This document shows positions 22,321 through 33,858 of a stretch of DNA of 64,000 bases, piece by piece (the first letter of the stretch is position 1; every line of letters starts with the position of its first letter). The DNA is from Mycobacteriales bacterium. GTDB taxonomy: Bacteria > Actinomycetota > Actinomycetes > Mycobacteriales > SCTD01. The position numbers and the translations under genes were made by a program. The stretch spans positions 1 to 64,000 of the forward strand of contig JAUYQP010000046.1 of assembly GCA_030697205.1 (NCBI GenBank), read 5' to 3'. Below the pieces are notes generated by a model that saw only the letters and a list, made by a program, of their open reading frames with translations, made no database searches and had not been told where the DNA came from.

Positions 22321-22394
22321 CGCGGGGTGGAGCAGCTCGGTAGCTCGCTGGGCTCATAACCCAGAGGTCGCAGGTTCAAATCCTGCCCCCGCTA
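22321..22394 (+). tRNA. tRNA-Met (CAT), initiator type
   Basis: A full cloverleaf is readable: acceptor CGCGGGG/CCCCGCT, D-arm GAGC...GCTC, anticodon arm CTGGG-CTCATAA-CCCAG with anticodon CAT, T-arm GCAGG-TTCAAAT-CCTGC, discriminator A. Two hallmarks of initiator tRNA are present: an unpaired first position (C1 against T72) and three consecutive G-C pairs in the anticodon stem. No CCA is encoded. Its 3' end is the likely attachment site of the accessory DNA that follows. Confidence 0.95.
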
Positions 22395-22412
22395 CAACGC
22401 AAAACCGCAGGT

Positions 22413-22631: not shown

Positions 22632-24956
22632 GTGACCCAACCCGCTCCCAGCATCGACCTGCGCCCGCACCCGCGGGTCCTCACCGTCCTCGGGGACATC
22701 CCGTTCGCGCCGTGGCAGTGCATCGCCGAGCTCGTCGACAACAGCTTCGACGAGTTCCTTCGGCACCCCATCGACGGTGAGCGTCCGCGTGTCGCCATCA
22801 CGCTCCCCGGCCGGAACAGCCACCCGACCGAGGCTGAGGTTTGGGTAGTCGACAACGGGCCCGGCCTGACACTCGACCAACTTCAGAACGCGCTCCGAGC
22901 CGGATGGACGAGCAACGACCGTCACGGGCAACTCGGGCTCTTCGGCATGGGCTTCAACATCGCGACCGCACGGATGGGGAACCTCACGCGCGTCCGCACC
23001 GCCCGTGCCGAGGACCCGCACTGGACCGTCGTGACGCTGAACCTGCCCGAGATGCAGCGGGCCGGACACTTCGACGTCCCGGTCCGGACCGAGCCCAAGA
23101 GTCACCCCTCAGAACACGGCACCGAGATCGTCGTGAGCGACCTGAAGCAGGCCCTGCACGACCAGCTCTCGAGAAACTCCCGCAAGCTGCGCGAAACGCT
23201 CGGCGACGTCTACAGCTACCTGCTCACCGAGCATGACTTCGAACTCACCGTCGACTCCACCGCCGTTCAGCCGCGCAGGCCCTGCGTGTGGGCCCCGGAG
23301 CGATTCGTCGTGCGCAACGCGGAACGCATCCCCGCATACATCAAGATCGACGAGCCGCTGGGCGAGCGGCTCGCCTGCCTGGACTGCGGAACGTGGCAGG
23401 ACGACCTGGGTGACGCGGAGTGCCGCAACTGCAAGAGCAGCCGGCTGCAGGCCCGAGAGCGCCGCATCTGGGGCTGGCTCGGGATCCAGCGGTACACAGA
23501 CAAGACCGACTTCGGCATCGACTTCTTGCGCAATGGCCGCAAGATCTTGCTCCGCGACAAGAGCATGTTCGACTGGGTCGACCCGAACGACCCGATCGCC
23601 TCCGGCGAGCGCGAGTACCCCGTCGAGGTCCCCTACGAGGGCCGCATCGTCGGCGAGATCCACGTCGACCACCTCTGGGTTCCCTACCAAAAAAACGGCT
23701 TCGAAACCGCCTCACCCGACTGGGTCAAGGTGCGGCGGACGCTCAGGGGCGAGTCGCCCCTGCGGCCGCAGAAGGCCCGCGAGCTCGGGTACACCGAGAA
23801 CATCAGCCCCCTCGCGCGCCTGTTCACGGGCTACCGCCGCACCAACGGGGGCCTGAAGGACCTCATGCCAGGCGACGGCAAGACGGCGCTCCGCGCGAGG
23901 GCTCGCGAGTGGGCCGAGCAATTCCAGAAGGGCGACCCCGACTACCAGACGGACGAGCGCTGGTACGCGCAGGCCGAGCTGCATGACCGTCCTACGCCTG
24001 AGCCTGACCCTGAGCCGACGCCCGAGCCCGGCGGAGACGCCTTCTCGCGAGCCGGCCTTGGGGACGACCGTGACTTCGACGCACCCGCACCCGGTCCGGG
24101 AGCGCCTCCGCCGCCTCCTGCACCGCCGGAGACCGAGGACGCGCGACGGACGCGGTGGAAGACGGGCGGCGCCGCCGTGCCCGACCTGGAGACGCAGTTC
24201 GGTCTTCGCGGCCGGGGTAGCGCGCTGCAGGTGACGGGCGCGTGGCGCGTGACGGGCAACCGCGGCCAGATCGGGCCTGTGGGCCGCGCCGGTCAGCCGG
24301 TGTACATCGGGACGGGGCGCGGCGCCCAGGTGGAGATCTTCATTGACGATGAGCACCCAATCTTCACCGACTTCGCCGTCGATGTGCGGGATCTCGTTAC
24401 GGTCGCGCTCGCTGACTACCTCCGGACCCGTGAGGGTGCGCAGGACGACATCACGTCGCTTTTCGCGGACCTGAAGGAGCAGTGCCTGAGCGACCAGCGC
24501 GTCACGGGCCCGTTCCTGAAGGACAGCGCTGACAGCCTCCTGGACCGGATCCGGGAGGCGATGGCTCCGATCATCTCCGGCAACAGCACCGGCTACTGGA
24601 CATTGCTGCTCGAGCCTGAGAAGGCCGCGACACAGCAGCGGTTCGTGCGCGAGGGCGGCCGCAACTGGGACGACACGCTCACCGAGGGTCGCTGGCTCAA
24701 CTACGCGCCAGCGAAGGGCCTCGTGCGCCTGCTGACCGGTCGCCCCGACGCTTTCCTCGACGGACGGGTCTTCGCGGCCGCCTACGCGACCCTGACGGAC
24801 GCGGACGCGCAGCGGGCCGGGCTCGAGCGCGTCACGGACCTGCTCTCGGACGTGGCCGCGCTCTCGGACCAGCCGGTCCGGCGTCGCTCCGAGGAGTTGC
24901 AGCGCGGCCGGCTGTCGATCAGCCTGCTGTCGGACGAGCTCATCGAGTCCGTGTGA
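22632..24956 (+). CDS. GHKL (MutL/MORC-like) ATPase with internal zinc ribbon, defence operon gene 1
   Basis: 774 aa. The N-terminal GHKL ATPase motifs are clear: ELVDNSFDE (Asp36, Asn37), VVDNGPGLT (Asp74) and QLGLFGMGFN (about residues 100-108). A four-cysteine zinc ribbon, C249-x2-C252-x11-C264-x2-C267, sits in the middle, followed by an S5/transducer-like region (FGIDFLRNGRKILLRD). Then comes a Pro-rich linker (about residues 455-500, PGPGAPPPPPAPPETE) and a C-terminal domain of about 270 residues that I do not recognise. Such ATPases occur in restriction-modification operons (MORC-type systems) where they probably clamp DNA and couple recognition to cleavage. Its stop overlaps the next start by 4 bases (GTGA). 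Confidence 0.85.
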   Translation: MTQPAPSIDLRPHPRVLTVLGDIPFAPWQCIAELVDNSFDEFLRHPIDGERPRVAITLPGRNSHPTEAEVWVVDNGPGLTLDQLQNALRAGWTSNDRHGQLGLFGMGFNIATARMGNLTRVRTARAEDPHWTVVTLNLPEMQRAGHFDVPVRTEPKSHPSEHGTEIVVSDLKQALHDQLSRNSRKLRETLGDVYSYLLTEHDFELTVDSTAVQPRRPCVWAPERFVVRNAERIPAYIKIDEPLGERLACLDCGTWQDDLGDAECRNCKSSRLQARERRIWGWLGIQRYTDKTDFGIDFLRNGRKILLRDKSMFDWVDPNDPIASGEREYPVEVPYEGRIVGEIHVDHLWVPYQKNGFETASPDWVKVRRTLRGESPLRPQKARELGYTENISPLARLFTGYRRTNGGLKDLMPGDGKTALRARAREWAEQFQKGDPDYQTDERWYAQAELHDRPTPEPDPEPTPEPGGDAFSRAGLGDDRDFDAPAPGPGAPPPPPAPPETEDARRTRWKTGGAAVPDLETQFGLRGRGSALQVTGAWRVTGNRGQIGPVGRAGQPVYIGTGRGAQVEIFIDDEHPIFTDFAVDVRDLVTVALADYLRTREGAQDDITSLFADLKEQCLSDQRVTGPFLKDSADSLLDRIREAMAPIISGNSTGYWTLLLEPEKAATQQRFVREGGRNWDDTLTEGRWLNYAPAKGLVRLLTGRPDAFLDGRVFAAAYATLTDADAQRAGLERVTDLLSDVAALSDQPVRRRSEELQRGRLSISLLSDELIESV

Positions 24957-26611
24957 CGGCTTACGTCGCTCCGAGCCTGCTGACAGAGGGCGGGCCGTAC
25001 CGCTTCACGCGCCAGGTCGAACGGCTCCTGGGACAGCTCGGCTTCACCGATGTCGTGAACATCGACGGCAGCGGTGACCGCGGGGGCGACCTGCTGGCCA
25101 CGCGACAGGGCCAGCTGTGGGCGTTCCAGGCGAAGTGGAAGAAGGGCCAGGCTGTCGCGGCCGACGCCGTCGATGAGGTCGCGTGGGCGCAGGACCACTA
25201 CGGCACAGACCGGGCCGTCGTCGTCACCAACACGCGTCTGTCCCCCGACGCGCTGCGACGCATCGACGAACTCGGCCGGATCGGCAAGGACATCAAGCCA
25301 TGGGACGGCGTGCTCCTCCAGGAGTTGTACGCCGGCGCCCCGGAGCACCCCGCCCTCGTTCTTCGTGACTATCAGGACGATGCGGTCAGCGAGCTCTGGA
25401 GCGACCTGCAAGGCAAACAGCGTGCCTTGCTCATCCTCGCGACCGGCCTCGGCAAGACGGTCGTCGGCGGCGAGATCATCGGCCGCTATCTGCGCGCAAA
25501 CCCCGAGCGCGACGTCCTCGTGGTCGCTCACACGAAGGACCTCGTCAACCAGTTGGAACGAGCCTTGTGGCGTCACCTCCCTAAGGGCGTGAAGACGCAG
25601 GTCCTGACCGGAGACGACAAGCCGCGCGACCTGCATGGCGTCACGTGCGCGACGGTCGCGAGCGCTCTCGACGCCGTCCTCAAGGGCTGGCGCCCTGGGC
25701 TTGTAATGGTGGACGAGACCCATCACGTCGGTGAGGACGGCCAGTTCGACCGGCTCCTCACGGAACTTGCCGACGCGCTCCAGTTCGGTGTCACCGCGAC
25801 GCCGTGGCGCGCGGACCAGTACGACATCGAGCAGAGGTTCGGCCTCGCGAGCTACAAGCTCGGCATCGAAGAAGGCATGAAGCGCGGGTACCTCGCCGCT
25901 GTCGACTACCGCCTGTTCGTCGACAACATCGACTGGGATGTCGTCCGGCAGGCCAGCGAAAATCGGTACTCGCTCAAGGAGCTCAACAGCAAGCTCTTCC
26001 TCGTGCAGCGAGACGACGCCGTCATCGACGCCCTGTCAGACGCGTGGCGCAACGTCGCGGATCCGCGCGGCATCGTCTTCTGCCAGACGATCCAGCACTG
26101 CGAACACATGGAGCAGCTCGTCCGCCGGCGCCCCGAGTGGCGCAACGCGAGCGCGATCCACGCGAACATGCCAAAGCGTGAACGGCAGCAGCGACTGCTC
26201 GACTTCCGGTCAGGCCGGATCCCGCTACTCATCGCGGTGGACATCCTCAATGAGGGCGTCGACGTCCCGGACGTGAACATCCTCGCCTTCGCGCGCGTCA
26301 CGCACAGCCGCCGGATCTTCGTCCAACAGCTCGGGCGCGGCCTGCGGCTCCGAGCCGGCAAGGACAAGGTCGTCGCGCTCGACTTCGTGAGCGACATCCG
26401 CCGCGTCGCGGCCCTCCTCAACATCCGCCGCCAACTCGACCCCGACGGCGACGTCGAAGTGCTGCCCCGCGTCCCGCAAACACGGATCGAGTTCAACGAT
26501 GTCCGCGCCGAGAGCCTGCTCGAGCAGTGGATCCTCGACGCGGCCGACCTGGAAACCGCGAACGACGAAGCGAAGCTGCAGTTCCTCGACCCGGACATCC
26601 TCCCGGCATGA
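24953..26611 (+). CDS. Mrr-type nuclease fused to SF2 helicase, defence operon gene 2
   Basis: 552 aa from GTG 24953. Residues 15-120 form an Mrr-like PD-(D/E)xK nuclease domain: GSGDRGGDLLATR with Asp46 and FQAKWKK with Gln59 and Lys61. Residues about 140-500 form an SF2 helicase: ATGLGKTVV (Lys168), DETH (254-257), VTATPWR, and QLGRGLRLRAGKD as motif VI. It most likely translocates along and cuts foreign DNA as the restriction engine of the operon. Start and stop each overlap a neighbour by 4 bases. Confidence 0.88.
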   Translation: MTAYVAPSLLTEGGPYRFTRQVERLLGQLGFTDVVNIDGSGDRGGDLLATRQGQLWAFQAKWKKGQAVAADAVDEVAWAQDHYGTDRAVVVTNTRLSPDALRRIDELGRIGKDIKPWDGVLLQELYAGAPEHPALVLRDYQDDAVSELWSDLQGKQRALLILATGLGKTVVGGEIIGRYLRANPERDVLVVAHTKDLVNQLERALWRHLPKGVKTQVLTGDDKPRDLHGVTCATVASALDAVLKGWRPGLVMVDETHHVGEDGQFDRLLTELADALQFGVTATPWRADQYDIEQRFGLASYKLGIEEGMKRGYLAAVDYRLFVDNIDWDVVRQASENRYSLKELNSKLFLVQRDDAVIDALSDAWRNVADPRGIVFCQTIQHCEHMEQLVRRRPEWRNASAIHANMPKRERQQRLLDFRSGRIPLLIAVDILNEGVDVPDVNILAFARVTHSRRIFVQQLGRGLRLRAGKDKVVALDFVSDIRRVAALLNIRRQLDPDGDVEVLPRVPQTRIEFNDVRAESLLEQWILDAADLETANDEAKLQFLDPDILPA

Positions 26612-27228
26612 CCCGCGACCTCCTACTCCCCGAGGCGCTGCGCGCCGAAATCGTCCGGGCGCTCTACGCGGACGCGAACCAGCTCGGCTGGGCCAACCTC
26701 GGCCCTCAGGCCAAGACCACCGCCTTCAACAGGTGGATCGATGACCCGCGCGTCGGCGGCCGCCTCACCGGCTACATGAGCCCCGAGCAAGCACGACTGT
26801 GGATCAAAGACGGCCCGATGAAGGAATATGCCCGCGCCATGCGTGGCACCGGCCGGTTCGCCGAGTTCGGACGTCGAGGCGGCACCAGCCCACAGGACAT
26901 TGTGAACCGCGCCCTGGGCGACGGCACGAACATTGACGGCAACATCGGGACGAAGCCGCCGCACTGCCTTGCCACCGCGAGCGACGGAACGCAGGCGTAC
27001 GTCACGTGGGGCGACACGAACAGCCTCAAGCACCTGCTGTGGGCCGCACTCCGCGGATCCATCGACCACGGCGTTCCGGGACACATCGTCGTGCTCGAGC
27101 CGCCCGGCACCGTGACACCGACCGCCACAGCGGACGAGCAACGCGCCATCACAGACCGGTGCGGCCTCACCCTGCATCACCTGCGCGAGGTGCTCGGAAG
27201 CATGACGCCAGTGACAGACGCGCCATGA
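26608..27228 (+). CDS. Unrecognised 206-aa protein, defence operon gene 3
   Basis: 206 aa, ATG at 26608. I do not recognise the family. The N-terminal 70 residues are helical and contain WANLGPQAKTTAFNRWIDDP, MSPEQARLWIKDGPMKEYARA; the C-terminal part is more beta-like (PPHCLATASDGTQAYVTWGD, HIVVLEPPGTVTP). No signal, membrane span or obvious catalytic motif. It is locked between the nuclease-helicase and Vsr genes by 4-nt overlaps on both sides, so it is almost certainly a working part of the system: a specificity, partner or regulatory subunit are all possible. Confidence 0.8.
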   Translation: MTRDLLLPEALRAEIVRALYADANQLGWANLGPQAKTTAFNRWIDDPRVGGRLTGYMSPEQARLWIKDGPMKEYARAMRGTGRFAEFGRRGGTSPQDIVNRALGDGTNIDGNIGTKPPHCLATASDGTQAYVTWGDTNSLKHLLWAALRGSIDHGVPGHIVVLEPPGTVTPTATADEQRAITDRCGLTLHHLREVLGSMTPVTDAP

Positions 27229-27659
27229 CTCGCGCGCCTGAGGTCACAAGCCGCATCATGTCGAGTGTCCGCAACGCCGACACTGGACCCGAGCGCGCGC
27301 TTCGGTCCGCCCTCCACCGTCGAGGACTTCGGTACCGGGTGCACAGGCGCATGCTCGGCAAGCCCGACATCACGTTCGTCGGGCCGCGCGTCGTGGTGTT
27401 CGTCGACGGCGACTACTGGCACGGCAACGCATGGCGGACCCGGGGATACGCCGACTTCGACAGCTACTACTGCCGCGGCGAAAACGGCGCGTTTTGGGCA
27501 GCCAAGATCCGCCGTAACGTCGAACGCGACCAGCACGTCACGGAAGGCCTTCGTGCCGATGGTTGGTGCGTGGTCCGTGTCTGGGAGACCGACCTCGCCT
27601 CCGACCTCAACGCGGTCGCGGACCGCATCAAGACCATCGTCCGGGACCGGGCCGCGTGA
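27225..27659 (+). CDS. vsr: Vsr-type very-short-patch repair endonuclease, defence operon gene 4
   Basis: 144 aa. The Vsr signature is complete: TSRIMSSVRNADTGPERALR, LHRRGLRYRVHRRMLGKPDITF with catalytic Asp48, and VVVFVDGDYWHG with the metal-linked histidine, then RNVERDQ and VVRVWE near the end. Vsr nicks next to T:G mismatches that arise when 5-methylcytosine deaminates, protecting sites of the partner methyltransferase, which is encoded immediately downstream with a 4-nt overlap. In ATPase-containing restriction systems Vsr-fold nucleases can also be the cutting subunit, so both roles are open. Confidence 0.92.
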   Translation: MTRAPEVTSRIMSSVRNADTGPERALRSALHRRGLRYRVHRRMLGKPDITFVGPRVVVFVDGDYWHGNAWRTRGYADFDSYYCRGENGAFWAAKIRRNVERDQHVTEGLRADGWCVVRVWETDLASDLNAVADRIKTIVRDRAA

Positions 27660-28846
27660 CCAGCAACAAGGCCAAGACCAAGAAGACGGATCCTCCGCAG
27701 TCGGTCGAGCTGTTCGCCGGCGGCGGCGGCATGGCCCTAGGCATGCGCGAAGCCGGGTTCAAGCACACCGCACTCGTCGAGTGGTGGGCCCCCGCAGCCA
27801 AGGTGCTGCGCCACAACGCCAATCTGAAGCCCGATCTGTGGAAGCCCGACGACGTCATCGAGGCGGACGTGCGCCTGTCGCTTGACCTGCTCGGTGAGCG
27901 TGGCACCGTCCAGCTCGTCGCCGGAGGCCCTCCCTGCCAGCCGTTTAGCCTCGGCGGTGCTCATGCGGGCGACACGGACGAGCGCAACCAGTTCCCAGCC
28001 GCCCTCGACGTGGTGCGCAGACTCCGCCCCGAACTGGTCATCTTCGAGAACGTTCCCGGTCTGCTGCGACCGTCCTTCGTCGACTACGTCGACTACGTGA
28101 AGGCGCAGCTCCGGCATCCGGACATCACCGCCAAGAGCGACGACGAGCTGTGGAACGAACACCACGCTCGGATCAACAAGAGCAAGGCCCTGCCCATCTA
28201 CCGCGTCTACCAGGAAGAGATCGACGCCGCCGACCTGGGCGTACCTCAGTCCCGCAAGCGCGTCTTCATCATCGGTATCCGCGCGGATGTTCCGGGCGCA
28301 GACACCTGGCAGAAGCTCGACATGAGCCACAGCCGCGACGCTCTCTTGCACGACCAGTACGTCACCGGCACCTACTGGGCGCGGCACAACCTCGCGCCAC
28401 AGGACGCCCCCATACGGCTCGCCAACGCCGTAAAGCGACTCGAGGCCGTGGGCGCGCCCGGCGATCAGGCGTGGCGGACACTTCGGGACGTCCTCACCAC
28501 GATTCCCAAGCCCGGGAAGGGTGAAGAGGTCCCGCTGTGGCCCAACCATCTGTTCATCCCCGGCGCCCGCACCTACGCCAAGCACAGCGGCAGTCCGGTC
28601 GACATGCCCAGCAAGACCATCAAGGCGGGTGTCCACGGCGTCGCCGGTGGCGAGGCGATGCTGCGCGAGCTCGACGGCACCGTCCGGTACCTCACCGTCC
28701 GTGAGGCAGCCACGGTTCAGGGCTTCCCGCAGCACTACGAATTTCCCGGTGCGCGTAGCCGCGTCATGGGGGTCATCGGCAATGCGGTCGCGACCCACGT
28801 CGCCGGCACACTCGGAAAGGCCCTGCGCAAGCACACGGGCCTGTGA
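27656..28846 (+). CDS. DNA (cytosine-5-)-methyltransferase, defence operon gene 5
   Basis: 396 aa from GTG 27656. C5 methyltransferase motifs are in order: I VELFAGGGGMALGM, IV GGPPCQPFSLGG with catalytic Cys94, VI FENVPGLL, VIII QSRKRVFIIG, a target-recognition region of about 130 residues, IX LTVREAATVQGFP and X VMGVIGNAVA. It protects host DNA by methylating cytosine in the system's recognition sequence, which cannot be read from the sequence. Last gene of the five-gene operon; it ends 67 bases from a convergent gene. Confidence 0.93.
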   Translation: MTSNKAKTKKTDPPQSVELFAGGGGMALGMREAGFKHTALVEWWAPAAKVLRHNANLKPDLWKPDDVIEADVRLSLDLLGERGTVQLVAGGPPCQPFSLGGAHAGDTDERNQFPAALDVVRRLRPELVIFENVPGLLRPSFVDYVDYVKAQLRHPDITAKSDDELWNEHHARINKSKALPIYRVYQEEIDAADLGVPQSRKRVFIIGIRADVPGADTWQKLDMSHSRDALLHDQYVTGTYWARHNLAPQDAPIRLANAVKRLEAVGAPGDQAWRTLRDVLTTIPKPGKGEEVPLWPNHLFIPGARTYAKHSGSPVDMPSKTIKAGVHGVAGGEAMLRELDGTVRYLTVREAATVQGFPQHYEFPGARSRVMGVIGNAVATHVAGTLGKALRKHTGL

Positions 28847-28913: not shown

Positions 28914-29888
28914 TCAGCCGCCGAAGACGTGCTCCTTGTGCCACCTCAGGTACCGGTGCTGGGGCTGGTCCGAATCCTGGGGAAAGAGCAGCCGCTCCCG
29001 GAGCGGTGGCCTAGCGAAGTAGTACTGCGCGCCATCCCCGGCCACGACTGCTTGTTGGAGGACTGGTGCCAGATGGATACGAAGGTCGTCCGTGATTGCG
29101 AGCAGCCCTTGATCAAACGCGACATCGTGTGTGGGGCAAGCCGCAAGTCCATTTCTATGATCGAGTCGTTCGCGGCTGCTCTGGCAGCTGCTCCACGGCT
29201 TGATGTGCGACGCGACCAGTAGTCGCTGGGTCTTGTCACCTGGAGGTGCGAAGCCGCAAAAGACGCAAGTATGACCGCAATTCTGCAGGACCGTGCGGGC
29301 AAACCGATGCTGTCCCACCCGCATGGCCGCCATGAGAATGCGTTCGGTCTCCGCCAGCCCGTCTTCGATCGTGCTGTCTACGAGTACCTCCCTGATCGAA
29401 GCTGTGAGATCCTGATCGTTGAGCTCCTCCTGACCCAGTAAGAGCAAGTCGCCACCAGACTCGAGACCTAGGAAGTCGGGCAGCTGCTCCGTGGTGAGAC
29501 CCTCTCGTCGTCCGGCGGCTAGGATTAGTCGGTAGACGGACGCCATGCGCGACGGATCCTCGCGGAGTCTGGCGCCAGCCGAGATGTCAAACTTCCCACC
29601 GTTGGACCTGCTGCCGTCCAGGTTGGCCATCTTGGCCAAGACGCTCGACGGAGGGCGGCGCATCAGTCTCGCTAGAGCCGGCACGGGTTCCGGCGCGAGG
29701 TGGGAGGTTGAGCCTCCGAACCTGTTGTGCTGCACCACGAAAGATGCAGCGAGGCAGAGCAGAGTCTCAATGGGAACGAAGTCGACCTGCCGGGAGCCCG
29801 CCCTTACAACGCGCCGTTGAATTAGGTCTCGGAACTGGCGGCCAGCCTCCTCCGGCGTCAGATCCAAGTAGTCGGAGAGGGAGGCCAC
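28914..29888 (-). CDS. HNH endonuclease
   Basis: 324 aa from GTG 29888. The C-terminal third is an HNH domain: CVFCGFAPP, LLVASHIKPWSS, ERLDHRNGLAACPTHDVAFDQGLL. The N-terminal part (about 180 residues) includes LARLMRRPPSSVLAKMANLDGSRSN, seen in HNH proteins linked to restriction systems. TAGCCT lies six bases before the GTG on the minus strand, so it is probably leaderless and separately transcribed from the methyltransferase 281 bases upstream. It is likely an additional restriction nuclease of the second defence module. Base composition is visibly less GC-rich than the flanks. Confidence 0.88.
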   Translation of the reverse strand: MASLSDYLDLTPEEAGRQFRDLIQRRVVRAGSRQVDFVPIETLLCLAASFVVQHNRFGGSTSHLAPEPVPALARLMRRPPSSVLAKMANLDGSRSNGGKFDISAGARLREDPSRMASVYRLILAAGRREGLTTEQLPDFLGLESGGDLLLLGQEELNDQDLTASIREVLVDSTIEDGLAETERILMAAMRVGQHRFARTVLQNCGHTCVFCGFAPPGDKTQRLLVASHIKPWSSCQSSRERLDHRNGLAACPTHDVAFDQGLLAITDDLRIHLAPVLQQAVVAGDGAQYYFARPPLRERLLFPQDSDQPQHRYLRWHKEHVFGG

Positions 29889-30169: not shown

Positions 30170-31231
30170 TCAGGCGCCGATGACAGCGAGGACTGCGCTC
30201 CCAAGCGCGGCCGCCATCTTCACCGGAACTGCGTTGCCGATCTGCCGCTCGATCTCCCCGTACGTACCGCTGAACTGGTAGGTCGAGGGGAAGGTCTGCA
30301 GCGTCGCGGCTTCTCGGAGCGTGATCCCGCGGGGCTCAGTCGGGTGGATGAACGACCCACATGCGGGCGTCGTGCAGCGGGTTGTCATGGTGGGTGCCGC
30401 GTCGTCGAGGCGGAGCCGTCCGTACGAGCCGGTAGCGCTTCGCCACCCTTCATCCAGCTTGTTGTGGCAAGGGAGCCGAAGATGCTCGGGTAGGTCAAAT
30501 CGCGACCCGTTGACCGGTACTGCACGTACGCGATCCAAGACAGTGCCGGACAACTGCCGACCGCGATCAAGCGGATCCCCTTCCTGGATTTCCTGCGCTA
30601 GCTGGTCGAAGGCCGTCCGCACCGTTGCTGGTGCTTCACCCTCCAAACCGACCCCTGAGAGTTCGGTGGGCAGCTCCGTCTTGACCCCCCGCCCAGCCAC
30701 GATAATCAGCCGCTTGCGGCGCTGCGGGACACCGAAGTCCTGCGCGTTCACCCTGTACTGCCTTGAGACGTAGCCGAGGGATGCCAGCACAGTCACCAGT
30801 CGACGCGATCTCGCGTCGCGCCCCAGGCCGGGTACGTTCTCTAACAGAACCATCTTAGGGCGGAAGGCGCGGACGAACCGGCCGAGGTCTAGGACCAAAT
30901 CGTTTTGAACCTCGTCGACCTCGGCGCGGCCTTCTGCGAGAGACGAGAACCCCTGGCAGGGCGGACAGGCCTTGAGCAGGGTCAGCTCGCCGACCTTGAG
31001 GCTCAGTTCACGGAGCATGGTCGTCGCGGGGACCTTCCGCACGTCCTCCGTCCAGAGGCGCACCTGCGGATGGTTGAGGGCGTAGGAAGTCGCTGCCGAC
31101 CGGTCGTTCTCAACCGCGCCTAGCACAGTAAAGCCGGCGTTCCGAAGTCCCTGGGTAGCGCCACCCGCGCCAGCGAACAAGTCGACTGCAGTCAGTCGAC
31201 TTGCCTTGTTCTCGTTCTCCTCCGTCGTCAC
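30170..31231 (-). CDS. DNA (cytosine-5-)-methyltransferase, second defence module
   Basis: 353 aa from GTG 31231, overlapping the upstream ATPase gene by 4 bases. Motifs: I AVDLFAGAGGATQGL, IV KACPPCQGFSSLAEG with catalytic Cys92, VI LLENVPGLG, VIII VPQRRKRLIIV, IX ITLREAATLQTFP, X RQIGNAVPVKMA. The target-recognition region is short and differs from that of the methyltransferase at 27656-28846, so a different site specificity is expected. Modifies host DNA for the restriction proteins encoded around it. Confidence 0.93.
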   Translation of the reverse strand: MTTEENENKASRLTAVDLFAGAGGATQGLRNAGFTVLGAVENDRSAATSYALNHPQVRLWTEDVRKVPATTMLRELSLKVGELTLLKACPPCQGFSSLAEGRAEVDEVQNDLVLDLGRFVRAFRPKMVLLENVPGLGRDARSRRLVTVLASLGYVSRQYRVNAQDFGVPQRRKRLIIVAGRGVKTELPTELSGVGLEGEAPATVRTAFDQLAQEIQEGDPLDRGRQLSGTVLDRVRAVPVNGSRFDLPEHLRLPCHNKLDEGWRSATGSYGRLRLDDAAPTMTTRCTTPACGSFIHPTEPRGITLREAATLQTFPSTYQFSGTYGEIERQIGNAVPVKMAAALGSAVLAVIGA

Positions 31232-33858
31232 GTTGTGCCCGATTCGACGTCAGGCTCTGAGGCGGCCGCGCCCTCGGTCGCGGGCGTGGGCTCGGGGGTT
31301 GTCTCGGCTGCCGCCTCTTCATGTGATTCGTGTCCCGCCAGCGACTTGGCGATGCGGGCGGCGACCAAGTCCGGAGACTGGCGCATGTACACGGTGTCCT
31401 TCGCGGTATCCACGACGATGAGCCCCCCACTCATCGCCTCCAGTGCCACGAGCTTGGTGGTGAACTGCGTGAGATCGATGCTTCGGTCCGTGACCTGCCA
31501 GAGTGAACGGAACGCGACTACGTCCTTGGCCGCGTCCCCGCGTTGGGCGTTCCAGATGCTCTCGAGCAGCGAGCGGAAGTCGAAGCTAGCGAGCGGATCG
31601 GTCAAGTCCGCGACGCGCTTTCGCTTCTCGTCGGGGGACTCGACGACCTGGAGGACCGGCAGGATGACAGAGAGCGGGTAGCTGTACTCCTGCACAGCTT
31701 TGTAGAGGTCGATGAGCACGTCGAGGGTCACGACGGAGACGCCACCCACCGCGGTGCACTCGTCGAGAATCGCCACACCCTCGTCCTTCGGCTGTTTAAA
31801 GCCGGAGAACTCGCGGGCGACCACGATGGCGTGGTCAGCCGTGACCTTGTCCCGATGCGAGGCGGCGCTGGCGATCGCTGCGGTCACGTTGGTCACCGCT
31901 GTCGAGGAACCCTTTGCTTCAACTGCGCAGGTGTAGTGCTCGGGGCCGGTAGGCGCAACGGTGAGCACGTCCTTCTGGCCGGGCGCGCCATCGCGAGAGG
32001 CGTCGAAGCCCATAAGCCGGAAGAGTTTTGCCAAGGCGATTTCGAACGGGGCGTCGCCCTTGAAGCTGGCGTTCGTGACCTCGGCGATGACCTCTTCGCC
32101 GGCCAGGCTGTATCGCGTTGCGAGGGCACGAAGCAGTCGATCGCGCCAACCACTGATGCCTTCGACCTGGTCAGCGGGCAGGCCGATCTCTCGGAGGTGA
32201 CCCTCGAGCAGCCGCTCTCCGACAGCGAAGACGTCGAACACGCGGAAGAACTTTTTCGCAGCAGCGCCACCGCCGGCCTCCGCTCGGACCGCAGCGAACA
32301 GGGGGTGGTCTTGATTGACAAGGAAGTTGCCCTCGACGACGTCCAGGTCCGAGAGGGGGCTTGCTTCGGTGTTGTTGACCCGTCGGACCTCGGGATCCGA
32401 GAAGTCTCCGTCTGCCCCGAGTGCGTCGCGAGCCAGCAAGAGGGCGGTGACGGGTTGCCTATACAGCTCACGGTTGTCCAGCGGCAGCAAGCTGACCGAG
32501 CTCCGCTTGGCGGCGTCCTCGTCGTCCTTGCTTTCGAAAAATGCGCGGGCCGCCCCGTTGAGGACTCGTTGCAGCAAGGCCAGTTCGGTGGCCGCCTTGC
32601 TCGATCGCTTGAGACGCTCGCGGTCCGCGAGAAGGTCGGTGTCAAGTGCGTCGGCGTGGATCACGAACTGCGTCCGGTAAAAGGAAGTGAAGGACGGGTC
32701 GTTCAGGAACAGGAGCTCGTCCTCGCTGTTGACGAGCCTCCCTCGCACCATGACGAAGAAGCCGTGAGTGCGGGGACGGTCCTCGTCCTTCTTCGCAAGA
32801 AGACTGTCTGCGAAGAGCCTGACCTCGACGCGCACGTCTCCGAGGTTCGGGAACCGAACCACTAAGTCGGGGATCTCGTCGCTGGTTTCGACCCAGACCT
32901 GAGCGTCCGCCCCCGCCTTCTTGGGCGCCGCGGGTATGCAGCCAGACATCCCAGGGCCGATCAGCAAGGTGCCGTCGACATCGCCCGCGCGCACGCTGTC
33001 GTACCAGCCGCTGGCGATGGCTTTGGTGAGACTCGGCGTCTCGAGGTTCCATGTCTCTTTGGCGTTCTTGCTGAGCTTGGTGGTGACCGCTTCCCCGTTG
33101 ACGTTGACGGCGAAGTCTGGCCGTAGCGGCATCCCATTGCCGATCACCCAGCTCAGTCGGCCGGGCTTGAGGTCTACGTCTGCTCGGAGACGTCCGATCC
33201 GCGCGAGGGTCCAGGTCGGACGTTCTAGGAGTTCGTCGATGTCAGCGGGAGGATCGGTGAACAGCGAACGGATGGCTGTGTGTGCCTCCTCCTTGGTGAG
33301 ACGTCGGACAGGTGTCGTGTAGGACTTGGTCCCTCGGTTCTCGTCGAGGACTTGGACGTAATCGACGTTCACCAACAGGTAGTCTTCGCCGGATCGGCAG
33401 TAATGGGTGATCTGGTCCCCGACGGCATAGCTCGCCAGTTTTCCGATCCCGAACTTTCCGATCATGTCGCGAGTCACTTGGTGGCCGTCGATCATGCCCA
33501 CGATCTGGCGCTTGGGGACCTTCGCCTTCGGGCTGCGCGCAATCTCCCAGAGTGACTTGAGGCCGCCGATGTCCATTGACTGGCCGTCATCCCAGACGAG
33601 CACGGAGCCGGTGATCTGCTCGCCAGGAACCCAGACATCGACGGTGCTCGCGAGCGCGTCGAAGCCGTTCGCGACGAGTTCCTCGACTGCCTTGTTCGGC
33701 GAGCCGTAGAGGTGCTGTGAGAAGTGGGAGATGATCGCGTAGTCGATGGCGATCTCGACCGTGTCGGCCTCTACCCCTACGTCCGAGGGTTCGACGGGCA
33801 CGGCAGGTTCCTCGGAACCCTGCGTTGCATCCGGTGCGGGGCCTTCTGCGGCGGTCAA
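31228..33858 (-). CDS. GHKL ATPase fused to a PD-(D/E)xK-like nuclease domain
   Basis: 876 aa from a TTG start at 33858 (AAGGA about 11 bases upstream). The N-terminal 60-180 region is a GHKL ATPase: NKAVEELVANGFDA, VWDDGQSMD, GKFGIGKLASY. A long middle follows. At residues about 610-680 there is a restriction-nuclease-like core: KLFRLMGFDASRDG, Asp630 in QKDVLTVAP and Glu647-Ala-Lys649 in AVEAKGSS, the D...ExK pattern of Mrr-like enzymes. An Ala/Glu/Pro-rich tail ends the protein. The overlap with a C5 methyltransferase gene marks this as the restriction partner. It is a single-chain ATPase-nuclease, unlike the split arrangement of the first module. Confidence 0.85.
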   Translation of the reverse strand: MTAAEGPAPDATQGSEEPAVPVEPSDVGVEADTVEIAIDYAIISHFSQHLYGSPNKAVEELVANGFDALASTVDVWVPGEQITGSVLVWDDGQSMDIGGLKSLWEIARSPKAKVPKRQIVGMIDGHQVTRDMIGKFGIGKLASYAVGDQITHYCRSGEDYLLVNVDYVQVLDENRGTKSYTTPVRRLTKEEAHTAIRSLFTDPPADIDELLERPTWTLARIGRLRADVDLKPGRLSWVIGNGMPLRPDFAVNVNGEAVTTKLSKNAKETWNLETPSLTKAIASGWYDSVRAGDVDGTLLIGPGMSGCIPAAPKKAGADAQVWVETSDEIPDLVVRFPNLGDVRVEVRLFADSLLAKKDEDRPRTHGFFVMVRGRLVNSEDELLFLNDPSFTSFYRTQFVIHADALDTDLLADRERLKRSSKAATELALLQRVLNGAARAFFESKDDEDAAKRSSVSLLPLDNRELYRQPVTALLLARDALGADGDFSDPEVRRVNNTEASPLSDLDVVEGNFLVNQDHPLFAAVRAEAGGGAAAKKFFRVFDVFAVGERLLEGHLREIGLPADQVEGISGWRDRLLRALATRYSLAGEEVIAEVTNASFKGDAPFEIALAKLFRLMGFDASRDGAPGQKDVLTVAPTGPEHYTCAVEAKGSSTAVTNVTAAIASAASHRDKVTADHAIVVAREFSGFKQPKDEGVAILDECTAVGGVSVVTLDVLIDLYKAVQEYSYPLSVILPVLQVVESPDEKRKRVADLTDPLASFDFRSLLESIWNAQRGDAAKDVVAFRSLWQVTDRSIDLTQFTTKLVALEAMSGGLIVVDTAKDTVYMRQSPDLVAARIAKSLAGHESHEEAAAETTPEPTPATEGAAASEPDVESGTT

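What the first reader, a model, noticed from the sequence alone, without database searches (positions are those of the whole stretch)
22632..28846. Five-gene, fully coupled defence operon: GHKL ATPase with zinc ribbon, Mrr-helicase, unknown protein, Vsr, C5 methyltransferase
All four junctions are 4-nt stop/start overlaps (24953, 26608, 27225, 27656), so the five proteins form one unit. Directly visible: GHKL motifs and a four-Cys ribbon in gene 1, nuclease residues Asp46/Gln59/Lys61 and a DETH helicase in gene 2, Vsr motifs in gene 4, C5 MTase motifs in gene 5. Known background: restriction-modification systems with MutL/MORC-like ATPases were described by comparative genomics (Iyer, Abhiman and Aravind 2008). 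Inference: this is such a system with two potential nucleases, a mismatch nickase and an extra subunit, and its mechanism may be new.
Basis: partly seen in the sequence, partly recalled or inferred. Interest (0 to 1): 0.78.

Follow-up and report, generated by a model that had tools for sequence, protein, structure and literature searches.

The report
MORC-ATPase restriction-modification operon
A bacterial operon joins a relative of the eukaryotic chromatin ATPase MORC, a DNA motor-nuclease and a nuclease-shaped but apparently inactive partner to a DNA methylase; it is widely conserved, probably destroys DNA lacking the host's CCGCGG-type methyl mark, and I found no report that it has been tested.

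Summary
In detail: five ORFs at 22632-28846 on the + strand, with four 4-nt overlaps. Gene by gene: (G) a MORC-type GHKL+S5 ATPase with a zinc ribbon; (H) an Mrr nuclease fused to an SF2 helicase; (U) an unknown protein; (V) Vsr; (M) a C5 methyltransferase. Relatives show two modules rather than one unit. G-H-U stay together in fixed order in 92 of 102 loci, and most exceptions are contig ends; they occur in Actinomycetota, Alphaproteobacteria, Deinococcus and others. M-V form a second module that changes side and strand, so Vsr goes with the methylase as its repair partner and is probably not a restriction nuclease. U is predicted to have a PD-(D/E)XK-fold domain with no conserved catalytic residues, so it is probably a pseudo-nuclease. 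The methylase belongs to the M.Eco29kI/M.DrdVII type (CCGCGG/YCGCGR), and 41 of 92 loci also carry an Eco29kI-like nuclease; this one does not. Best reading: an ATP-dependent restriction system in which G-H-U destroys DNA lacking the CCGCGG-type mark. MORC-containing R-M operons were described by comparative genomics in 2008; PADLOC has no model for G or U. The class is known. The pseudo-nuclease subunit, the two-module split and the predicted site are new here.

The parts
22632..24956 (+). Gene 1 (G): MORC-type GHKL + S5 ATPase, 774 aa
   Evidence: Pfam HATPase_c_3; AF2 model pLDDT 88.6, best PDB fold match MORC3 Z 22.0 over 297 residues at 20% identity; profile match to MORC3 E=1e-9
23367..23441 (+). 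Zinc ribbon C249/C252/C264/C267 inserted in the S5 domain of gene 1
   Evidence: Cys249 and Cys252 in 87 of 92 loci, Cys264 and Cys267 in at least 90%; absent in the Deinococcus homologue
24129..24953 (+). C-terminal region of gene 1 (aa 500-774), fast-evolving, confident model, fold not identified
   Evidence: Mean pairwise distance 0.70 against 0.49 for the N-terminal part; pLDDT mostly 80-97
24953..26611 (+). Gene 2 (H): Mrr nuclease domain fused to an SF2 (ResIII/RadD-like) helicase, 552 aa
   Evidence: D46/Q59/K61, Walker A and DE.H invariant in 92 loci
24995..25327 (+). Mrr-type PD-(D/Q)xK nuclease domain of gene 2
   Evidence: Mrr_cat aa 15-125, E=3e-15
26608..27228 (+). Gene 3 (U): N-terminal helical domain plus PD-(D/E)XK-fold domain without conserved catalytic residues, 206 aa
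   Evidence: AF2 pLDDT 92.3; VIA-align: EndoMS/NucS Z 8.6, XisH 6.2, PaqCI 6.2, Shedu 5.7 over residues about 88-199; no conserved acid in 80-206; K67 invariant in 92 of 92
27225..27659 (+). Gene 4 (V): Vsr-type very-short-patch repair endonuclease, 144 aa
   Evidence: NCBIfam vsr 111 bits against cut-off 97.85; D48, W65 and H66 kept in at least 78 of 81
27656..28846 (+). Gene 5 (M): C5-cytosine methyltransferase, M.Eco29kI/M.DrdVII type, 396 aa
   Evidence: Pfam DNA_methylase; 39.8% identical to M.Eco29kI and 38.5% to the pDrdI enzyme taken to be M.DrdVII
28607..28654 (+). Target-recognition-region motif PSKTIKAGVHGVAGGE of gene 5
   Evidence: K[TA]xKAGxHGxxGGE found in 88 of 17,939 ORFs, 86 of them methylases of G-H-U loci; also present in M.Eco29kI and M.DrdVII

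Best explanation
It is a methylation-guided, ATP-dependent restriction-modification system built of two modules. Modification module (M-V): M methylates cytosine in a CCGCGG-type (YCGCGR-like) palindrome, and Vsr repairs the T:G mismatches that deamination of that 5-methylcytosine produces. Restriction module (G-H-U): the three proteins work together. The H helicase moves along incoming DNA, G acts as an ATP-gated dimeric MORC clamp holding or looping the DNA, U (a dead restriction-enzyme fold) binds the C-terminal part of G and helps read or position the target, and the Mrr domain of H cuts DNA whose sites are unmethylated. Shown by computation: the domains, invariant catalytic residues, module conservation and methylase family. 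Inferred: the exact site, complex formation, the role of U, the cutting by Mrr, and restriction itself.
For: G-H-U in fixed order in 92 of 102 loci; G-H and H-U junctions are 4-nt overlaps in 58 and 48 of 92. Distances of G, H and U correlate at 0.86-0.96, those of M and V at 0.79-0.93, across modules only 0.50-0.62; U has its highest partial correlation with the G C-terminus, 0.51. Mrr D46/Q59/K61, Walker A and the GHKL residues invariant. A methylase is present in 90 of the 92 loci, and 86 carry the same target-region motif as M.Eco29kI (CCGCGG) and M.DrdVII (YCGCGR). M.DrdVII: the methylase beside G-H-U is the only C5 methylase found on pDrdI, where the methylome paper places M.DrdVII, YCGCGR (the motif also in PMC8112702). 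38 of 92 loci have an Eco29kI-like nuclease within 500 bp of M; the window and 50 others have none, leaving Mrr as the only apparent restriction nuclease there. Precedent: VcSduA, a GHKL ATPase fused to a PD-(D/E)xK nuclease, needs both activities against phage (PMC12137116).
Against: No experiment. Four G-H-U loci (L093, L096, L097, L103) carry a methylase of another type, so G-H-U is not tied to one site. Weak co-variation between modules does not show which subunit reads the site. The site of this particular methylase is inferred from about 40% identity plus one motif. Mrr domains often cut modified rather than unmodified DNA (general knowledge).
Confidence: 0.68

Rival explanations
1. G-H-U is an independent anti-phage module (sensing DNA ends, structure or replication, as proposed for Shedu-like systems) that only travels with a CCGCGG-type methylase-Vsr or Eco29kI R-M cassette; methylation is irrelevant to it.
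For: The modules have different histories (cross-correlation 0.5-0.6 against 0.86-0.96 within G-H-U); M-V lies on either side and either strand; 41 loci already have an Eco29kI-like nuclease; VcSduA works as a single gene.
Against: A C5 methylase is present in 90 of 92 G-H-U loci, and 86 have the same rare target-region motif; a chance travelling partner would not be so uniform. The only methylase-free G-H-U loci are L027 and L087, both cut short by a contig end.
Confidence: 0.17
2. It is an accessory to a classical type II enzyme: an Eco29kI-like nuclease cuts, and G-H-U degrades or processes the cut DNA.
For: Eco29kI-like nuclease in 41 of 92 loci, usually next to M.
Against: 51 loci including the window have no such gene nearby, and the plain G-H-U-V-M order alone accounts for 17 loci; none was found in the 64 kb window.
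Confidence: 0.08
3. Type IV restriction: the Mrr domain cuts modified phage DNA, and M-V is unrelated.
For: Mrr_cat domain; Mrr-family enzymes are classically modification-dependent (general knowledge).
Against: A 5mC methylase is present at nearly every locus, which would make 5mC-dependent cutting suicidal unless the target modification differs.
Confidence: 0.05
4. A DNA-repair operon: MutL-like ATPase, helicase and Vsr doing very-short-patch or mismatch repair of deaminated 5mC.
For: MutL, helicase and Vsr cooperate in E. coli VSP repair (general knowledge); EndoMS, a mismatch endonuclease, is the best fold match of gene 3.
Against: G matches MORC, not MutL, by profile and fold; V belongs to the methylase module, not to G-H-U; gene 3 lacks a conserved active site; the distribution is patchy and includes plasmids and viral contigs.
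Confidence: 0.04

Closest known systems
Prokaryotic MORC/paraMORC R-M operons of Iyer, Abhiman and Aravind 2008 (PMC2292703), set 1: MORC with Rad25-like helicase fused to a restriction-fold nuclease
   Same: MORC GHKL+S5 ATPase, SF2 helicase with a fused restriction-fold nuclease, cytosine methylase and Vsr in one neighbourhood; patchy, laterally mobile
   Different: The main text I read does not describe gene 3, its fold, the split into G-H-U and M-V, or the CCGCGG-type methylase; the figure with gene maps could not be viewed, so this exact gene set may be drawn there
Eco29kI-type R-M systems (CCGCGG), some with V and H elements in REBASE (PMC10855626)
   Same: Same methylase type (39.8% identity to M.Eco29kI) and Vsr; 41 of 92 relatives also carry an Eco29kI-like nuclease; 'Type II Helicase Domain Protein' elements are noted in that survey
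   Different: The window has no GIY-YIG nuclease; restriction would have to come from an ATP-dependent complex
CglI/NgoAVII ATP-dependent type II systems (PMC4267653)
   Same: Methylase plus helicase/ATPase protein plus separate nuclease protein; cleavage needs nucleotide hydrolysis (title and abstract)
   Different: No GHKL protein among the three genes listed there; here the nuclease is fused to the helicase, and a MORC ATPase and a dead restriction fold are added
VcSduA (GHKL-type Shedu, PMC12137116)
   Same: GHKL ATPase controlling a PD-(D/E)xK nuclease; both needed for defence
   Different: Single protein, no helicase, no methylase in the system
MORC-Z1 type R-M operons (e.g. Rathayibacter L007, Hymenobacter L008) and Mza
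   Same: GHKL ATPase beside a C5 methylase and a Z1 protein; weak PADLOC MzaB match in 15 of 49 G relatives
   Different: Z1 protein in place of the Mrr-helicase; about 24% identity in G only

Membership tests
Prokaryotic MORC (Iyer et al. 2008) | GHKL ATP-binding motifs plus S5 domain | tested here: met
   E33/N37/D74/G105/G107 invariant; GHKL+S5 fold match to MORC3, Z 22.0, 297 residues
Prokaryotic MORC (Iyer et al. 2008) | MORC-specific motif GhXhhpXXRhl in the S5 domain | tested here: inconclusive
   A relaxed form (any residue at the p position and the tenth position) is in 92 of 92; the strict form in 4 of 92; in the sequences shown K or T takes the tenth (h) position
Prokaryotic MORC (Iyer et al. 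2008) | Closer to eukaryotic MORC than to other GHKL families | tested here: met
   Profile E=1e-9 for MORC3 against 0.003 for Hsp75; by fold alone MORC and Hsp90 are tied
MORC R-M operon, set 1 | SF2 helicase fused to a restriction-fold nuclease, with methylase and often Vsr | tested here: met
Eco29kI-type CCGCGG R-M | C5 methylase of the M.Eco29kI type | tested here: met
   39.8% identity over 382 aa and shared target-region motif
Eco29kI-type CCGCGG R-M | GIY-YIG Eco29kI endonuclease | tested here: not met
   No hit in any ORF of the window, so not filed as an Eco29kI system
Eco29kI-type CCGCGG R-M | Methylation of CCGCGG | not testable with these tools
   Needs methylome data
Vsr endonuclease | Score above the curated NCBIfam vsr cut-off | tested here: met
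   111 against 97.85 bits
Active PD-(D/E)XK nuclease (gene 3) | Conserved D...(D/E)xK residues | tested here: not met
   No column of 80-206 has an acid in 45 or more of 77 sequences; the only conserved lysine is K116
PD-(D/E)XK fold (gene 3) | Restriction-endonuclease-like core fold | tested here: inconclusive
   Predicted model only: secondary-structure order H-EEE-H-E-H fits; EndoMS Z 8.6 and several other restriction-fold proteins at Z 5-8 head the list, but this is at the edge of the noise level quoted by the tool
Named defence system in PADLOC 2.0 | Model match for genes 1 and 3 | tested here: not met
   No family for G or U

The most novel reading that the evidence does not exclude
A restriction complex in which a MORC ATPase clamp and a catalytically dead restriction-enzyme fold (U) together read the unmethylated site and license a helicase-borne Mrr nuclease: a bacterial MORC acting as a DNA-methylation-dependent switch, which would be a tractable model for how eukaryotic MORCs respond to epigenetic marks.
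Probability: 0.3. Interest if true: 0.8.

Novelty: new variant of a known kind. Interest (0 to 1): 0.6.

Why it matters
I found no experimental test of a prokaryotic MORC operon in the literature searched. This one is compact, conserved across phyla and has a predicted recognition site (CCGCGG-type), a predicted nuclease site (Lys61 of gene 2) and a predicted ATPase site, so the 2008 proposal that MORC ATPases serve DNA restriction becomes directly testable. It also adds a widespread, unannotated pseudo-nuclease family (gene 3).

Tried and rejected
Gene 3: Pfam scans of 77 members, PDB sequence searches, PHROGs and PADLOC gave nothing; profile comparison with the Mrr-helicase alignment gave no match. 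Foldseek alone gave no hit at E<=0.001; the fold assignment rests on VIA-align and secondary structure. HNH neighbour (28914-29888): considered as a sixth gene, rejected because it has a homologue in only one other of the 92 loci (L011). Direct repeats flanking tRNA-Met to mark an island: none found. Literature searches for a tested bacterial MORC defence system found none beyond VcSduA and the 2008 and 2021 comparative papers. Co-variation analysis did not single out a target-reading subunit. The fold of the C-terminal part of gene 1 was not resolved (the fold search mostly covered residues 11-438).

Full report
OBSERVATION. The five ORFs and their four 4-nt overlaps are exactly as described. 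Below, G, H, U, V and M stand for genes 1 to 5.

RELATIVES. Plasmid searches gave homologues in Rhodococcus, Streptomyces, two roseobacters and Deinococcus, and more distant MORC-Z1 operons in Rathayibacter and Hymenobacter. A profile scan of one genome per species found 213 relatives of G (80 kept), mostly Actinomycetota but also a delta-proteobacterial, a myxococcal and a spirochaete contig; viral contigs gave 16. HMMs built from these sequences and run over all loci gave the neighbourhoods. G-H-U occur in that order in 92 of 102 loci that hold G. Six of the ten exceptions are contig ends (L012, L040, L056, L075, L092, L102), one is broken by transposase remains (L003), and three are divergent (L104-L106). 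In a sample of 296 genomes of the phylum only the own genome and one weak match had G, so the distribution is patchy.

TWO MODULES. M is found in 90 of the 92 G-H-U loci, but before or after G-H-U and on either strand. V lies beside M on the same strand in 76 of 84 loci with both. Pairwise distances form two blocks: M and V correlate at 0.79-0.93, G, H and U at 0.86-0.96, across blocks 0.50-0.62; the pairs are not independent, so these are descriptive. So the five genes are not one co-inherited unit, and Vsr is best read as the repair partner of the methylase.

PROTEINS. G: model pLDDT 88.6; closest solved fold is MORC3 (Z 22.0, 297 residues, 20% identity), with Hsp90 tied by fold but clearly weaker by sequence profile. 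The zinc ribbon is inserted in the S5 domain. H: nuclease and helicase residues are invariant in 92 of 92. U: model pLDDT 92.3. Residues 88-199 match PD-(D/E)XK proteins best (EndoMS 8.6, XisH, PaqCI, Shedu), at scores close to the tool's noise level, but the catalytic acids and the paired lysine are not conserved. Conserved residues are instead K67, D68, K72, R76, K116 and P117, so U is probably a DNA- or partner-binding pseudo-nuclease (inference).

TARGET SITE. M is 39.8% identical to M.Eco29kI and 38.5% to the methylase beside G-H-U on plasmid pDrdI. R.Eco29kI recognises CCGCGG (PMC1952068). The D. wulumuqiensis 479 methylome paper assigns a 5mC enzyme M.DrdVII, YCGCGR, to pDrdI (PMC6430315), and the only C5 methylase found on that plasmid is the one in this operon. 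The motif was also seen by MspJI sequencing of a strain called D. radiodurans (PMC8112702). The target-region motif K[TA]xKAGxHGxxGGE is in 88 of 17,939 ORFs, 86 of them in G-H-U loci, and in both characterised enzymes. Of 92 loci, 41 also hold an Eco29kI-like GIY-YIG nuclease, 38 within 500 bp of M. The window has none. Four G-H-U loci use another methylase type.

MECHANISM. Shown: catalytic residues conserved, G-H-U inseparable, methylase nearly always present and of one type. Inferred: G clamps or loops DNA under ATP control, H translocates and its Mrr domain cuts, U contacts the G C-terminus (partial correlation 0.51) and helps read the site, M protects the host and V preserves methylated sites. 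Precedent for GHKL control of a restriction-fold nuclease is VcSduA. Iyer et al. proposed DNA looping by MORC in R-M operons.

NOVELTY. The class is known since 2008 by comparative genomics; a survey of CCGCGG R-M systems notes V and H elements. PADLOC has no model for G or U. New here, as far as I could check: the fixed G-H-U core, the pseudo-nuclease fold of U, the module split and the site prediction. I could not see Iyer's gene maps or REBASE, so part of this may be drawn there.

Noticed in passing
window 30170-33858, - strand: A second GHKL-based R-M pair next door: an 876-aa HATPase_c_3 protein (31228-33858) with a D...EAK sequence suggesting a fused restriction-fold nuclease, overlapping a second C5 methylase (30170-31231) by 4 nt. 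BLAST finds no significant similarity between the two GHKL proteins.
   Followed up: partly
window 28914-29888, - strand: HNH endonuclease resembling phosphorothioate-DNA restriction enzymes (NCBIfam PT-DNA_restrict 62 bits, below cut-off; PADLOC HNH 5e-27); a 51% homologue lies beside the same operon in Blastococcus L011.
   Followed up: partly
L050:13322-14701 and 23 other loci, mostly downstream of gene 3: A protein of about 400 aa with a Sigma70 region 4 helix-turn-helix follows G-H-U in 24 loci, mostly Streptomyces and relatives; possibly a regulator.
   Followed up: partly
L004:14751-15830, L005:10473-11552: PIN_8-domain protein directly after gene 3 in the roseobacter plasmids; relatives near G-H-U in 6 loci.
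   Followed up: no
window 22321-22395: tRNA-Met lies 236 bp upstream of gene 1, with ordinary chromosomal genes (SecDF, Na/H exchanger, UPF0182) before it; a possible island boundary, but no flanking direct repeat was found.
   Followed up: partly
L003:8443-10851: In the Streptomyces cathayae plasmid the ATPase is fused behind a helix-turn-helix domain, appears truncated, and is followed by what looks like transposase remains instead of the helicase.
   Followed up: no
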